Positions 5,586 through 32,157 of a DNA stretch of 34,028 nucleotides are shown here, piece by piece. Position 1 is the stretch's first letter. Every line of letters starts with the position of its first letter. Both the position numbers and the translations under genes were made by a program. Origin of the DNA: a virus. Below the pieces are notes generated by a model, which was not told where the DNA came from, made no database searches, and saw only the letters and a list, made by a program, of their open reading frames with translations. The stretch spans positions 1 to 34,028 of the IMG/VR virus record IMGVR_UViG_3300042385_000712; one strand, 5' to 3'.

Positions 5586-6386
5586 TTAGAAAAGTGTTAG
5601 CTGTGCTTTTTCATGTTGAAGCCATTCAACAGCCGCCTTGTGAAAATTTTTCTTAATTTCAAATCCGTAGGCTGAACGATTGCTGTGATGAGCCGCAACA
5701 ATCGTTGAGCCGCTGCCACAGCATGGATCAATAACTACATCGCCCTCGTCTGTAAATAGTCCGATTAGACGCTTTAGGAGCAATACGGGTTTTTGCGTTG
5801 GGTGAATTTTTTCACTCTCATTGTCTCGCGGCCAATCCATAGCATTGAAAATCATTTTGCCGTTATTGTTGAATTTTGGTAATTTGTCACGGTAGAGAAT
5901 CAAGCCGTATTCACAGTTTCCAACAACTCGCATATTTGCTTTCAAAACTTGCGCGGAAAAGTTTTTAACAAATACAAGATTGATATAGTTCATAAAGCCA
6001 TGCTCTTTGGCTTTTTCGATGATTTCCATTTGCTGATCAAAAGCGCAGAAAACAATCATACAAGGTGCAACTCCCGTCTTTTTTTTGTCCTCAGGCTTTA
6101 ACATGCGACTGCAAAAATGCAAAAACTCTGATATGCGAAAATCTTTGTCGGTATCAAAAAACTCTTTGCCAGCCAATGCGCTTTCTCCATTCTTGTTATC
6201 ACCGCCCTCATACCATGCAGGATTGCTCCCATAAGCGTTGATTCCGATATTGTAAGGAATATCAGCAATTACAAGTTGCGCTTTTGGTATATTGTGGCGT
6301 TTGTAATTCTGAAAATGGTCATTGTAAATTTCATGTTTGATTTTTTTTTGCTGTGGTAGTTCTTCATTCATATTCTTTAATATCAT
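5586..6386 (-). CDS. DNA methyltransferase, beta-class N6-adenine/N4-cytosine type
   Basis: The product is 266 residues. Motif IV (DPPY) appears as ADIPYN at about 41-46. The S-adenosylmethionine-binding motif I, DPCCGSGST, is at about 220-228, with HPTQKPVLLLKRLI just before it. The IV-before-I order defines the beta class. DIPY in place of DPPY is a tolerated variant; adenine-N6 is the more likely target. No restriction endonuclease is adjacent, so it is an orphan enzyme that probably shields phage DNA or tunes expression. The ATG at 6386 overlaps the previous stop as ATGA; an internal ATG at 6371 is also possible. Confidence 0.85.
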   Translation of the reverse strand: MILKNMNEELPQQKKIKHEIYNDHFQNYKRHNIPKAQLVIADIPYNIGINAYGSNPAWYEGGDNKNGESALAGKEFFDTDKDFRISEFLHFCSRMLKPEDKKKTGVAPCMIVFCAFDQQMEIIEKAKEHGFMNYINLVFVKNFSAQVLKANMRVVGNCEYGLILYRDKLPKFNNNGKMIFNAMDWPRDNESEKIHPTQKPVLLLKRLIGLFTDEGDVVIDPCCGSGSTIVAAHHSNRSAYGFEIKKNFHKAAVEWLQHEKAQLTLF

Positions 6387-9967: not shown

Positions 9968-10186
9968 TTATGGGATGGTGTAAATTGCCTTATCCTTGCC
10001 GCCAATGCGCTCGATCTGAGTGCCACTTGACACATCATATTGACTGCAAAGATTTTCGATTGCCTCATCGCTCCAGCTTTCTCCGTTTGCTCCATCTAGG
10101 TATTTACCGGCAACGTAGATTTGATCGACGCAACGGCTTTTGATGTAGCGAATGGTGAGCTTGCCTTTAGGAAGTGGTAGTTTCAT
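9968..10186 (-). CDS. first gene of the early operon, hypothetical
   Basis: The 72-aa protein (MKLPLPKGKLTIRYIKSRCV, YVAGKYLDGANGESWSDEAI, SQYDVSSGTQIERIGGKD) begins about 16 bases after the predicted start of promoter P1, so it is the first protein made from the early operon. Mixed alpha/beta composition, basic N-terminus. No family recognised. First early genes of phages often act against the host, but nothing in the sequence shows this here. Confidence 0.55.
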   Translation of the reverse strand: MKLPLPKGKLTIRYIKSRCVDQIYVAGKYLDGANGESWSDEAIENLCSQYDVSSGTQIERIGGKDKAIYTIP

Positions 10187-10299: not shown

Positions 10300-10341
10300 C
10301 GGGAAATCTGCGCTTCCCGAACGGGAAATCTGGAATTCCCG
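10300..10341. promoter_or_regulatory. two tandem 20-bp dyads, operator-like
   Basis: CGGGAA-8 bases-TTCCCG occurs at 10300-10319 and again at 10322-10341. Both share CGGGAAATCTG at the left, and the centres are 22 bases apart, about two helical turns. A minus-strand TTGACA is at 10347-10342, directly next to the second dyad. The pair looks like a binding site for two repressor dimers in the control region between divergent transcription units. Confidence 0.6.
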
Positions 10342-10351
10342 TGTCAACCAT

Positions 10352-10399
10352 ACGTCCGATTTACGTCCGATGACACCGCTTTTACGTCCGATGATACCG
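10352..10399. repeat. helically phased ACGTCCGAT direct repeats
   Basis: ACGTCCGAT occurs at 10352-10360, 10363-10371 and 10384-10392, offsets 11 and 21 bases, so all three face the same side of the helix. The last two extend to an 18-base repeat TTACGTCCGATGAyACCG (10361-10378 and 10382-10399) with one mismatch. They lie between the dyads and the plus-strand promoter at 10412, where an activator or repressor array would sit. Confidence 0.65.
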
Positions 10400-10411
10400 G
10401 TAAAGCGTGAG

Positions 10412-10439
10412 TTGACAATCGCTCGCTGACTGGTATCTT
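10412..10439 (+). promoter_or_regulatory. plus-strand promoter PR1 (TTGACA-N16-TATCTT)
   Basis: -35 TTGACA is at 10412-10417, the spacer has 16 bases, and -10 TATCTT is at 10434-10439, followed by TTGCT. The same hexamers, spacer length and downstream TTGCT recur in PR2 at 10594-10621. It is opposite in direction to all the phage genes. Transcription would start near 10446. Confidence 0.6.
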
Positions 10440-10445
10440 TTGCTC

Positions 10446-10591
10446 GCCTATCTGCCACGATGCAGAAAAGGATACGGATTCGCTCTGCGGGTCTAGCATT
10501 TCGATGGTGACAAGCTCCAGCTTGGTAACATCACACTGGCCGCATCACTTAATGCGTTGGGAGGACTCAGCGGAGGTGATGCGGTCTTTTT
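10446..10591 (+). ncRNA. candidate small RNA 1 (about 145 nt)
   Basis: The segment lies between PR1 and an intrinsic terminator and has no convincing protein gene. It can fold into several stems: GCAGA/TCTGC (near 10463-10489), an outer GTGA/TCAC around CAAGCT/AGCTTG (near 10507-10534), and the terminator stem. It is the first of two tandem plus-strand units. A regulatory RNA acting on the leftward early operon or on host RNA is inference. Confidence 0.45.
10540..10591 (+). terminator. intrinsic terminator of small RNA 1
   Basis: CCGCATCAC (10540-10548) pairs perfectly with GTGATGCGG (10576-10584) over 9 bp, around a 27-base loop, followed by TCTTTTTATTT. The loop is long, but the stem and U-tract are clear on the plus strand. 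Confidence 0.65.
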
Positions 10592-10593
10592 AT

Positions 10594-10621
10594 TTGACAA
10601 CGTTTCGGGTATTGGTATCTT
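10594..10621 (+). promoter_or_regulatory. plus-strand promoter PR2 (TTGACA-N16-TATCTT)
   Basis: -35 TTGACA is at 10594-10599, 16-base spacer, -10 TATCTT at 10616-10621, then TTGCT. The stretch TGGTATCTTTTGCT is identical to that of PR1 except at one base. It begins two bases after the terminator of small RNA 1. Predicted start near 10628. Confidence 0.6.
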
Positions 10622-10627
10622 TTGCTG

Positions 10628-10711
10628 GAACTTGTCAAACGGTGTATGCCGCCTAGCAGGTGAGCAGATCCCCCAGGCCTCTCGACGATGCACACTTGGG
10701 GGATATTTTTT
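10628..10711 (+). ncRNA. candidate small RNA 2 (about 85 nt)
   Basis: A short plus-strand unit between PR2 and a strong intrinsic terminator. No start codon with a plausible frame of useful length lies inside. The 40 bases before the terminator stem (GGTGTATGCCGCCTAGCAGG region) would be the exposed part. Function unknown; it is a good candidate for an antisense or decoy RNA. Confidence 0.45.
10668..10711 (+). terminator. intrinsic terminator of small RNA 2
   Basis: ATCCCCCA (10668-10675) pairs with TGGGGGAT (10697-10704), 8 bp, 21-base loop, followed by ATTTTTT. It faces the minus-strand terminator at 10726-10756, so the two convergent units end tail to tail. Confidence 0.75.
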
Positions 10712-10850: not shown

Positions 10851-11135
10851 TCACGCTTTGCCAGTAGCGTCCGAGTAGGCATTGCACTGCTTACCGTTGA
10901 TCTTGATTTTGCGTATTTTTAGCTCGCCATTTTTGACCAGCTTTTTCAGCTCCCACCGGCTGGAGTCATAGGTGGTATATAGCCCAAGCTTTTTCGATTT
11001 TTCGATATATTGCTCAACGGTGAATTCGTCGGCACGCAACGGCGATGCGGTTGCCATCTCCAGAGCCTTTTCAAGTGCGCTCAGAGAATCCCTTGTGGAC
11101 TGATCCAAATTCCGTTTTCCTTTGTAACTTGCCAT
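10851..11135 (-). CDS. winged-helix-like small protein, end of the late operon
   Basis: The start at ATG 11135 is chosen because AGGAGA lies about 10 bases upstream; a TTG at 11144 is also open. The 94-aa product has a basic start (MASYKGKRNLDQSTRDSL) and a C-terminal winged-helix-like domain: LRADEFTVEQYIEKSKKLG, SRWELKKLVKNGELKIRKIK and NGKQCNAYSDA. I recognise this plan from small phage regulators. It overlaps the phosphoesterase gene by 55 bases, so an internal start at 11057 cannot be excluded. Confidence 0.6.
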   Translation of the reverse strand: MASYKGKRNLDQSTRDSLSALEKALEMATASPLRADEFTVEQYIEKSKKLGLYTTYDSSRWELKKLVKNGELKIRKIKINGKQCNAYSDATGKA

Positions 11136-11812
11136 GCTGTCCAATCTCCTGTCTTGGTGTTTATTATGCCATACAAAAAGCCGTTGCGATGCCCTAGTTT
11201 TGCTGGCTGTCTGTCGCTGTAAGTGAGCTTGTCAAGGTCTGCCATGCAAGCCACCGAGAACGCTTTGCCGCCTTCAACGTGCCGAGCTGTATGCTCGTCT
11301 TTAGTGTGGCAGTGACCGTGCAAACATTCTCCCCAGTTGTCGAAATGAGCTTTAGCTGGGCTGACCGTCGAGCGGAAGCCGTGAATCAGCTTTGGACCGC
11401 CTTCGGGCAGTCTCAAAAACTTGGTCACTTTGTATTCGCAATAGGTAATTTTTCGGCGTTTGAATTCTTTTTCCGATGCTACCACAAGCTCCTCACATCG
11501 CTCGCGCAACATGCCGTCGGCACAATGCGTAGCGTATTGGTAAATCCGATCATCATGGTTCCCAAGCGTTAGGAAATTGGGTTTGTATTCGTCGAGAAAG
11601 TTTAAGCCTTCCACATAGTCGTCAGCGATGCCAAACGCTTTTTCCTCTTGGCTGGCGCCGCGGCGAAGCGGTGAAAAGTCCCAGAGATCGCCCAAATGAA
11701 TGCGGTAACTTGGTTTCCACGTTTCGCAGAACGCTAGCAAAACCTTTTTTGCCGAATGAGACACTAAGCCTCCGTGGTTGTCTGCTGCTACGATGAAACG
11801 TTTGTGGCTCAT
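11081..11812 (-). CDS. calcineurin-like metallophosphoesterase
   Basis: From ATG 11812 (TAATG overlap with the endolysin stop) the product has 243 residues. It carries all metal-binding motifs of the family in order: D-N-H in VAADNHGG, GD in IHLGDLWDF, GNHD in LTLGNHDDR, a His in LIHGFRS, and GHCHT in ECLHGHCHT. Phage members cleave nucleotide or nucleic-acid phosphoesters, but substrate cannot be told from sequence. Its position after the lysis genes is unusual for a replication enzyme; it may process host or phage nucleic acid late in infection. Confidence 0.88.
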   Translation of the reverse strand: MSHKRFIVAADNHGGLVSHSAKKVLLAFCETWKPSYRIHLGDLWDFSPLRRGASQEEKAFGIADDYVEGLNFLDEYKPNFLTLGNHDDRIYQYATHCADGMLRERCEELVVASEKEFKRRKITYCEYKVTKFLRLPEGGPKLIHGFRSTVSPAKAHFDNWGECLHGHCHTKDEHTARHVEGGKAFSVACMADLDKLTYSDRQPAKLGHRNGFLYGIINTKTGDWTAWQVTKENGIWISPQGIL

Positions 11813-29939: not shown

Positions 29940-30017
29940 TTACATTGCCAGCTTTTTGACAAGATCGCCGTCAATCTCTAGCTTCGGTCTGCCGCCTTTG
30001 TTTGGTTTCTCACTCAT
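29940..30017 (-). pseudogene. truncated HTH protein remnant (25 codons)
   Basis: ATG at 30017 overlaps the glycosyltransferase stop as ATGA and opens MSEKPNKGGRPKLEIDGDLV, ending KKLAM and a TAA stop. The opening KGGRPKLEID.DLVxKLA is the start of small phage DNA-binding proteins (KRGRPPxEIDWELVxKLxxx then an HTH) usually found just before terminase genes. Here it stops before the HTH, and no clean continuation exists in the other frames up to 29909. Either a recent truncation or a retained mini-peptide. Confidence 0.55.
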
Positions 30018-30865
30018 GATTTTTTGTGCGTTTCATCAATAATCTTTGGAACTGAATTGTTCCAACTTATCCGGTGGTGAAGCCGTGGGTTTGTCCATCC
30101 CATCGGCATGATTTTTGTTGATGATGGCATTGCCATTACCGTGTAAAAACTTTTCACATAAGTGCCGCTGGATAAATAGGCTTCTGTCATTCCGCCGGCA
30201 TTTGCCTGAGTGGTTTGCTGATTCAACGAAATTTGGTTTATCGTTAGAAAAATTTCACCACGCATTCCAAGTGTCATGTATGTGTTAACGTCCTCATTCA
30301 ATCTGCTCACAAAATTAAATCGACGTGCCGTCAAACAGAAAAAGCTGTTCATGGCCTTTCGCTTTGTTTTTACAGCTTGCGAGAAGCCACCATTCGGGCC
30401 GCCGATAAAGTCGCCCTGCTGAGCAAATGCGATTGACGATATTTTTGGACATGATTTCAGTAAATCAACGACAGCAAGAAACGATATTCCGAGACTTCGC
30501 TTGTGTAGCCAGTCACCGTATTTCAGTGATCCATTGAACTTGTAGCAGAAAAACGAATAGTCGTCGTCAAGCATTACGAATGCCTCAACACCTTTTGTTT
30601 TTGCAATATCAAATATGGCGTTCCTAACGTGGGTCGTGCTTCGATAGTTTTTAAAGTTGTCGTAGTTGTCAGTGGCTTCTGCATACTTATTCTTGTCGAA
30701 TACCACGACTTGATCGCCATATTTTTCGCGATACTGGTCGCCTTGGCTGTCTTCGTTGTCGATCACGATAAAGATCGATCCATCGTAACCTTGTTTGCGC
30801 AGAGTGGCAAAGGTGATTACTGATTCAGCCCGTCCATGGGATAAAATAAATGCTGCGAATTTCAT
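30014..30865 (-). CDS. TET-associated-type glycosyltransferase (DNA base modification)
   Basis: The 283-aa protein has the GT-A plan of the TET-associated glycosyltransferase (TAGT) family: KFAAFILSHGRAES at the N-terminus, the metal motif VMLDDDYSFF (about 98-106), SRLNEDVNTYMTLG (about 187-200), TTQANAGGMTEAY and SGTYVKSFYTVM, then RLHHRISW near the end. Family members add sugar to 5-hydroxymethyl-cytosine in phage DNA, usually beside a TET dioxygenase. No TET is visible in the window, so substrate is open. It is coupled by ATGA overlap to the ParB-like gene. Confidence 0.75.
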   Translation of the reverse strand: MKFAAFILSHGRAESVITFATLRKQGYDGSIFIVIDNEDSQGDQYREKYGDQVVVFDKNKYAEATDNYDNFKNYRSTTHVRNAIFDIAKTKGVEAFVMLDDDYSFFCYKFNGSLKYGDWLHKRSLGISFLAVVDLLKSCPKISSIAFAQQGDFIGGPNGGFSQAVKTKRKAMNSFFCLTARRFNFVSRLNEDVNTYMTLGMRGEIFLTINQISLNQQTTQANAGGMTEAYLSSGTYVKSFYTVMAMPSSTKIMPMGWTNPRLHHRISWNNSVPKIIDETHKKS

Positions 30866-31709: not shown

Positions 31710-31859
31710 TTAGATTGACCGCGAGACGCAGCGCATGGGGCATTTCAAAACCGTAAAAGATTCCTTAGTGGGGGTGTCTGCGCATATTCTCTTAAATGCA
31801 ATCAACTTGCGTTTGCAGTTACCGACTAAGCCTAAAGGATTTATCTCGCTCGCAATCAT
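31710..31859 (-). CDS. possible 49-aa Cys-containing small protein
   Basis: ATG at 31859 opens MIASEINPLGLVGNCKRKLI, continuing to SFTVLKCPMRCVSRSI and a stop at 31710. It has four Cys residues, two spaced C-x3-C near the end. It lies in the 258-bp gap between the ParB-like gene and the next small gene. No homologue is known to me and no ribosome-binding site is seen, only an A-rich tract, so it is uncertain. Confidence 0.3.
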   Translation of the reverse strand: MIASEINPLGLVGNCKRKLIAFKRICADTPTKESFTVLKCPMRCVSRSI

Positions 31860-31874
31860 TTTTCTTTTTTTGTC

Positions 31875-31902
31875 TTGACGTGTTTTTTGTTTTGGTTACA
31901 AT
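31875..31902 (+). promoter_or_regulatory. plus-strand promoter-like sequence antisense to a small gene
   Basis: TTGACG (31875-31880), a 16-base T-rich spacer and TACAAT (31897-31902) make one of the best consensus matches in the window. It points rightwards, into the antisense strand of the gene at 31919-32122. No plus-strand gene follows. It may be chance in a T-rich stretch or start an antisense RNA. Confidence 0.35.
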
Positions 31903-31918
31903 TGGATTACATTACTTG

Positions 31919-32122
31919 TTATTTAGTTACGTTTACGCCTTTCGATTCTGCATTGATTCTCGGCTTGGTGCTGCCATATGGCACGCGAATGATGCCCCGA
32001 TGATCCTCAAATGCTCGCAATGCCTCTTGCATCTCGCGTCTGCCGATGAACTCGTGAGCGATCAATTGCCGCCCGACTTTCTCCTTAGCCCAGCCGAGCG
32101 GTTTGCGTTTCTTGGTTGCCAT
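31919..32122 (-). CDS. small basic conserved protein, first gene of the late block
   Basis: The 67-aa protein (MATKKRKPLGWAKEKVGRQL, EFIGRREMQEALRAFEDHRG, VPYGSTKPRINAESKG) is basic and mostly helical. The ATG lies 29 bases after a TTGACA box, so it may be translated from a leaderless mRNA. Its position at the head of the late block suggests an early product of late transcription; DNA binding is possible. No family recognised. Confidence 0.55.
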   Translation of the reverse strand: MATKKRKPLGWAKEKVGRQLIAHEFIGRREMQEALRAFEDHRGIIRVPYGSTKPRINAESKGVNVTK

Positions 32123-32123
32123 G

Positions 32124-32157
32124 CGCTGACAATTGCAATTTGATTGCGTTATGTCAA
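32124..32157 (-). promoter_or_regulatory. probable promoter of the late block
   Basis: TTGACA is at 32157-32152 on the minus strand, followed by TAACGCAATCAAATTGC, in which the pattern yAACnnAATCAA is shared with the elements before the gpW-like and scaffold genes. A weak -10 (AATTGT) lies at 17 bases. It sits between the terminator at 32162-32190 and the first late gene, exactly where a new transcript must begin. Confidence 0.55.

What the first reader, a model, noticed from the sequence alone, without database searches (positions are those of the whole stretch)
10412..10711. Tandem plus-strand small-RNA units in the control region
Two successive units each have a TTGACA-N16-TATCTT-TTGCT promoter and an intrinsic terminator, giving RNAs of about 145 and 85 nt. 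They are the only convincing plus-strand transcription in 34 kb and start from the operator complex, facing away from the early operon, the place where temperate phages keep a repressor gene. An RNA-based switch, in the manner of the P4 or P1 c4 immunity RNAs, is a possible reading. Alternative targets are host RNAs.
Basis: partly seen in the sequence, partly recalled or inferred. Interest (0 to 1): 0.8.

Follow-up and report, generated by a model that had tools for sequence, protein, structure and literature searches.

The report
Phage-encoded solitary AbiF antitoxin-like RNA
This virus of bacteria makes small RNAs from its control region, and one of them looks like the RNA antidote that bacteria use to restrain the suicide toxin AbiF (the ancestor of Cas13), but the virus has no toxin gene, so it probably carries the antidote to stop infected cells from killing themselves.

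Summary
In detail: two TTGACA-N16-TATCTT-TTGCT promoters, each followed by a structured RNA with a terminator-like 3' end (about 147 and 84 nt), face away from the early operon. The proposed P4/P1-c4-type immunity RNA is not supported: there is no complementarity to phage mRNA beyond chance. The 3' hairpin of the second RNA (10669-10704) matches Rfam family abiF (RF03085; 32.0 bits, below the 37-bit cut-off), and 25 kin records pass the cut-off, nearly always at this same slot. Loop GCCUCUCRACGAUGC is near-invariant while the stem co-varies. abiF RNA is the antitoxin of the HEPN ribonuclease AbiF (Abi_2), ancestor of Cas13. With identical search patterns, an AbiF gene lies beside the hairpin at 72 of 92 bacterial loci but 0 of 83 distinct viral loci; cultured Aeromonas, Salicola, Synechococcus and Mycobacterium phages also carry it without Abi_2. 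Best reading: a solitary antitoxin mimic that keeps host AbiF inactive during infection. The first RNA is an undescribed structured RNA. In kin the slot is mosaic, with other hairpins, a second abiF RNA or tRNA-like genes, as if it were an exchangeable RNA counter-defence cassette. Binding, expression and host are untested.

The parts
10351..10399 (.). Three TACGTCCGAT repeats (two inside a 19-nt TTTACGTCCGATGAYACCG repeat): operator-like sites between the early minus-strand genes and the RNA units
   Evidence: repeat number and sequence vary in kin
10391..10418 (-). Candidate early promoter (TTGTCA-N16-TATCAT), back to back with promoter 1 and sharing its -35 bases
   Evidence: consensus match only
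10412..10439 (+). Promoter 1 TTGACA-N16-TATCTT (extended -10) for RNA unit 1
   Evidence: kept in L167, L030, L227, L228
10446..10592 (+). RNA unit 1 (about 147 nt): undescribed structured RNA made of modules M1, M2, M3
   Evidence: fold -57.9 kcal/mol; no Rfam match
10444..10498 (+). Module M1: two hairpins joined by a conserved GAUACGGA linker; loop CCACG/CCAUG
   Evidence: covariation in helix 1 (4 of 8 pairs change on both sides; 97.8% of cells paired against at most 49.4% when slid); found in divergent kin by covariance model R1
10501..10535 (+). Module M2: hairpin GATGGTGACAAGCT-CC-AGCTTGGTAACATC, absent in L228/L188/L166/L325
10539..10591 (+). Module M3: long hairpin plus U5, terminator of unit 1; the hairpin is also kept without U-run in L038
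10594..10621 (+). Promoter 2 TTGACA-N16-TATCTT for RNA unit 2; perfect consensus in L227/L228/L188
10628..10664 (+). Module M4: leader stem-loop ACUUG..AAACG..CGC.UAG.ARGU of RNA unit 2
   Evidence: 98.4% of cells paired against at most 50.8% when slid, two pairs changed on both sides
10669..10704 (+). abiF-antitoxin-like hairpin (Rfam RF03085 match, 32.0 bits, E 4e-4): stem UCCCCC/GGGGGA, loop GCCUCUCGACGAUGC at 10677-10691
   Evidence: stem covariation
10706..10711 (+). U6 run: 3' end of RNA unit 2
   Evidence: not kept in L024 and L030
10731..10758 (-). Terminator of the leftward structural operon, facing the RNA units

Best explanation
The second RNA (about 10628-10711) is a solitary, phage-encoded mimic of the RNA antitoxin of the AbiF (Abi_2, HEPN ribonuclease) abortive-infection system. 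It is made from a strong host-type promoter beside the early promoter. Its hairpin, with the near-invariant abiF loop on a freely co-varying stem, would bind the host's AbiF dimer and keep it inactive when infection would otherwise free the toxin, for example because the host's own antitoxin RNA is no longer made. The infected cell then does not abort the infection. The first RNA and its mosaic neighbours in kin are probably other decoy or counter-defence RNAs in the same exchangeable slot. Shown by sequence: promoters, hairpin, covariation, loop identity with AbiF-linked RNAs, absence of the toxin gene. Inferred: transcription, AbiF binding, anti-defence role. Unknown: the host.
For: cmscan: abiF RF03085 at 10669-10704. 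31 of 35 records (kin, plus some fetched by the loop motif) carry RF03085, 25 over the curated cut-off; one kin phage has two copies, 52.9 and 35.6 bits. In viral hairpins 5.60 of 6 stem pairs form, against 3.79 when arms are swapped among sequences; kin show CCACC/GGUGG, CCCUC/GAGGG, CUCCC/GGGAG and CCGCC/GGCGG. Same pattern in bacteria: AbiF-like ORF within 1.5 kb in 72 of 92 loci, against 0 of 83 viral, nearly always directly downstream on the same strand; Pfam Abi_2 confirmed in 8 of 10 genomes checked. Abi_2 absent from the window and from all but one of 123 viral records; that one is identical around the RNA to a bacterial AbiF locus. Cultured phages PZL-Ah8, T7-Ah, CGphi29, Thibault, S-CREM1 and S-SRM01 carry it at 49-55 bits without Abi_2. 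Published: the abiF-motif RNA RCd22 neutralises AbiF in trans by direct binding; its stem needs structure, not sequence (PMC12373285). Precedent: pseudo-ToxI of phage phiTE (PMC3475682).
Against: The window's own hairpin is below the Rfam cut-off (32.0 against 37): it has a G-A mismatch next to the loop and G in CUCRACG. Each change alone occurs next to bacterial AbiF genes (9 of 13 and 9 of 16 loci), but their combination was not seen there, so this allele could be weakened. The host is unknown and could not be shown to carry AbiF. The kin-specific stem sequence is absent from 84,980 bacterial and archaeal species genomes. No expression data. A U-run behind the hairpin in most kin leaves a terminator role as well. 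Lactococcus phage sk1, cited as protecting phage 712 from AbiF, has no abiF RNA.
Confidence: 0.72

Rival explanations
1. The hairpins are just intrinsic terminators that stop plus-strand transcription from entering the leftward structural operon.
For: U-runs follow both hairpins in the window; the converging operon terminator lies right behind.
Against: The 15-nt loop is near-invariant across unrelated phages while the stem changes; the U-run is missing in L024 and L030; module M3 is kept without U-run in L038; in L119 the abiF hairpin sits in the opposite orientation.
Confidence: 0.1
2. RNA-based immunity or lysogeny switch as in P4 CI / P1 c4: the RNAs pair with early phage mRNA.
For: Position beside operators and a divergent early promoter; duplex energy of unit 1 with the early leader is as low in only 1 of 100 shuffles.
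Against: Longest complementarity is 9-10 nt, at chance level; no integrase or repressor among proteins tested; modules are swapped freely among kin with the same early genes.
Confidence: 0.06
3. RNA anti-CRISPR (Racr): the hairpins mimic a CRISPR repeat.
For: Solitary structured RNA in a phage, mosaic among kin; some kin modules read ...GAUUGAAAG, like ends of CRISPR repeats.
Against: No Rfam CRISPR repeat match on the plus strand, only a weak minus-strand one (E 5.7); the 3' hairpin is identified as abiF.
Confidence: 0.05
4. Remnant or regulatory leader of a complete AbiF toxin-antitoxin system once carried by the phage.
For: Some prophages carry complete AbiF systems (PMC12373285); one viral contig here has the gene.
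Against: No Abi_2 trace beside the RNA in 83 distinct viral loci although loop and pairing are kept, which points to selection on the RNA alone.
Confidence: 0.07

Closest known systems
abiF RNA (Rfam RF03085), e.g. RCd22 of C. difficile prophage phi027 (PMC12373285)
   Same: Same loop (GCCUCUCRACGAUGC consensus of the family), stem with free sequence but kept pairing, own promoter
   Different: RCd22 has two motifs, sits upstream of its toxin gene and is co-transcribed with it; here there is one motif (two in L325), no toxin gene, and the window copy scores below the cut-off
pseudo-ToxI of phage phiTE (PMC3475682)
   Same: A phage-encoded RNA that mimics the antitoxin of a type III toxin-antitoxin/abortive-infection system
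   Different: Targets ToxN with a 36-nt repeat pseudoknot and becomes active only after repeat expansion; here the inferred target is AbiF and the hairpin is fixed and widespread
RNA anti-CRISPRs, Racrs (PMC10651486)
   Same: Solitary small RNA in phages that mimics the RNA partner of a host defence protein
   Different: Mimics CRISPR repeats; no CRISPR-repeat similarity was found here
abiF sRNA of cyanophage S-CREM1 (PMC9964418)
   Same: Solitary abiF RNA in a virulent phage, in a tRNA/RNA cluster
   Different: Reported as an Rfam hit with unconfirmed role; no toxin-linkage comparison and no anti-AbiF proposal in the passages read

Membership tests
abiF RNA (RF03085) | Covariance-model score at or above the 37-bit gathering cut-off | tested here: not met
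   Window copy 32.0 bits; hairpins at the same slot in most kin pass with 39-53 bits
abiF RNA (RF03085) | Near-invariant loop GCCUCUCRACGAUGC | tested here: met
abiF RNA (RF03085) | Stem of free sequence with kept pairing | tested here: met
AbiF type III toxin-antitoxin system | Abi_2 (PF07751) toxin gene next to the RNA | tested here: not met
   None in the window or kin; 0 of 83 viral against 72 of 92 bacterial loci
AbiF type III toxin-antitoxin system | RNA binds and neutralises AbiF | not testable with these tools
   Published for RCd22 (PMC12373285), not for any solitary phage copy
P4 CI / P1 c4 immunity RNA | Complementarity to early phage mRNA | tested here: not met
   Longest match 9-10 nt, as in shuffles
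pseudo-ToxI | ToxI-like tandem repeats | tested here: not met
   Sequence is not repeated in tandem in the window and matches abiF in Rfam; no other antitoxin RNA family matches
Racr (RNA anti-CRISPR) | Similarity to a host CRISPR repeat | tested here: inconclusive
   Only a weak minus-strand Rfam CRISPR match, E 5.7; host unknown
tRNA | Cloverleaf recognised by ARAGORN or Rfam | tested here: not met
   None in the window; RF00005 matches at this slot in kin L109 and L110

The most novel reading that the evidence does not exclude
The slot is an exchangeable cassette of several different solitary decoy RNAs (abiF antitoxin, the undescribed M1-M3, M4 and M5 RNAs, tRNA-like RNAs), each neutralising a different host suicide or defence system. 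The undescribed modules would then be handles for finding unknown RNA-regulated defence proteins, and solitary abiF RNAs would be a general phage strategy against the Cas13-ancestor family.
Probability: 0.4. Interest if true: 0.88.

Novelty: new variant of a known kind. Interest (0 to 1): 0.76.

Why it matters
AbiF is the root of the Cas13 CRISPR effectors. Finding its RNA antitoxin as a stand-alone gene in many unrelated phages would show a widespread RNA-based counter-defence aimed at this family, and would turn an Rfam motif that annotators leave unexplained in phages into a testable prediction: carriers should plate on AbiF-carrying hosts. The neighbouring undescribed RNAs suggest that further defences are countered in the same way.

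Tried and rejected
BLAST of the control region against annotated phages: nothing. Antisense to phage mRNA: chance level. sk1 against 712 (literature lead for AbiF protection, seen only in a reference list): no RF03085 in either genome. Kin-specific hairpin in bacterial genomes: none. Motif in 5,426 E. coli genomes: none. Modules M1, M3 and M5 in viral contigs: only this phage group. M1 model in 399 genomes of one bacterial order: two weak, probably chance matches. Host identification by RecT and terminase relatives: only distant named phages. Plus-strand ORF 31796-32143: no family, no independent support as a gene. The Cell 2025 AbiF/Cas13 paper was not held, so a remark there on phage copies cannot be excluded.

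Full report
WHAT IS THERE. The window is a 34,028-base viral contig of a tailed phage with GpA-type terminase, lambda-type portal, RecT, YqaJ exonuclease, DnaC-like loader and resolvase. The genes assigned here lie on the minus strand. Between the early operon (whose first gene ends at 10186) and the structural operon (nearest ORF 10851-11144) lies a control region. Both plus-strand promoters are present exactly as described and are the only TTGACA-N15..19-TATNNT sites in 34 kb. The predicted RNAs (10446-10592 and 10628-10711) fold well.

RELATIVES. Three protein scans and one promoter-pattern scan gave many relatives. BLAST of the control region against them shows a mosaic: flanks and early genes are shared while the segment between operators and structural operon is exchanged. 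Some kin have unit 1 and unit 2; others have a different promoter with module M4b plus a hairpin M5 (CCCGCCCCGA-loop-UCGGGUGCGGG) and then the last hairpin; in L034, L029, L024 and L035 a promoter directly abuts the last hairpin, so the RNA would be about 45 nt. In L109 and L110 tRNA-like genes take the slot. The last hairpin is the most constant element.

IDENTITY OF THE LAST HAIRPIN. cmscan with permissive threshold gives abiF RNA, RF03085, 32.0 bits, E 4e-4, over the full model. 31 of 35 searched records, mostly kin, match, 25 over the cut-off of 37 bits; L325's record has two copies. Among 73 distinct viral 40-mers, 57 form all six stem pairs; the mean is 5.60 against 3.79 with arms swapped. 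The base before the loop and its partner are C-G or U-A in most; the window has G-A, which also occurs beside bacterial AbiF genes (9 of 13 loci).

TOXIN LINKAGE. In bacteria the gene nearly always starts just behind the hairpin on the same strand. Pfam Abi_2 confirms the gene in 8 of 10 genomes and is absent from the window and from 122 of 123 viral records; the exception is identical around the RNA to a bacterial locus. Cultured phages show the same: RF03085 at 49-55 bits in Aeromonas PZL-Ah8 and T7-Ah, Salicola CGphi29, Mycobacterium Thibault, Synechococcus S-CREM1 and S-SRM01, no Abi_2. In the two Aeromonas phages it sits between the connector and capsid-assembly genes; in S-CREM1 among tRNAs.

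MECHANISM. Published work shows that an abiF-motif RNA neutralises AbiF in trans by direct protein binding, that breaking the stem abolishes this and that compensated stems keep it (PMC12373285). The comparative pattern here (fixed loop, free but paired stem) is what that mechanism predicts. With the toxin missing, the simplest purpose is to supply antitoxin to the host's AbiF during infection. Phage phiTE does this against ToxIN with pseudo-ToxI (PMC3475682) and Racrs do the equivalent against CRISPR (PMC10651486). Transcription, binding and benefit to the phage are inferred, not shown.

UNIT 1. It has no Rfam match. Its 5' part (M1) is a conserved two-hairpin element with a conserved GAUACGGA linker and covariation in helix 1 (six sequences only); a covariance model finds it in divergent kin, also in a second RNA unit facing the other way. 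Its 3' hairpin (M3) is kept in L038 without a U-run. Leader M4 of unit 2 also shows compensatory change. M1, M3 and M5 were found only in this phage group. Their function is unknown; by position and exchangeability I infer further decoy or counter-defence RNAs, with moderate confidence.

CAVEATS. The window's own hairpin is below the Rfam cut-off and carries two deviations whose combination was not seen next to bacterial AbiF genes, so kin copies are the better test objects. The viral records may be incomplete. The host is unknown. Absence of a published claim was judged only from the open-licence library.

Noticed in passing
L022 1834-1888, L334 79-133, L351 2421-2474, L477 8548-8601: A second RNA unit facing the other way: an M5-like core on a different stem, an M1-like hairpin pair, then a terminator GACCCCGTCAGCACCCACTGGCGGGGTTTTT.
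   Followed up: partly
L118, L114, L115 (about 7300-7450 in L118): Another stem with a long loop (GCCACGAGA ... TCTCGTGGC plus T-run) behind a promoter-like sequence, followed by an M1 element: possibly another solitary antitoxin-type hairpin.
   Followed up: no
L119 7139-7175: abiF RNA (51.4 bits) in the opposite orientation, with loop GCCUCUUAACAAUGC: a paired-looking C/G to U/A change inside the loop.
   Followed up: partly
L109 6949-7015 and L110 2854-2925: tRNA-like genes at the same slot behind TTGAC promoters, missed by ARAGORN; the L110 one has an odd anticodon loop without U33.
   Followed up: partly
window 10300-10399: Repeats CGGGAAATCTG and TACGTCCGAT before the early promoter; kin swap whole repeat families here (CCCTATGCAAA, GGCGTGAT), which suggests changing DNA-binding specificity or origin iterons.
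   Followed up: no
window 30014-30865 and 5586-6386: A protein like HMC-glucosyltransferases and an N6/N4 DNA methylase: the phage may modify its DNA.
   Followed up: no
bacterial loci L357, L358, L368, L370, L375, L379 and 14 others: abiF hairpins without an AbiF gene within 1.5 kb in bacterial genomes; some may be prophage-borne solitary RNAs.
   Followed up: no
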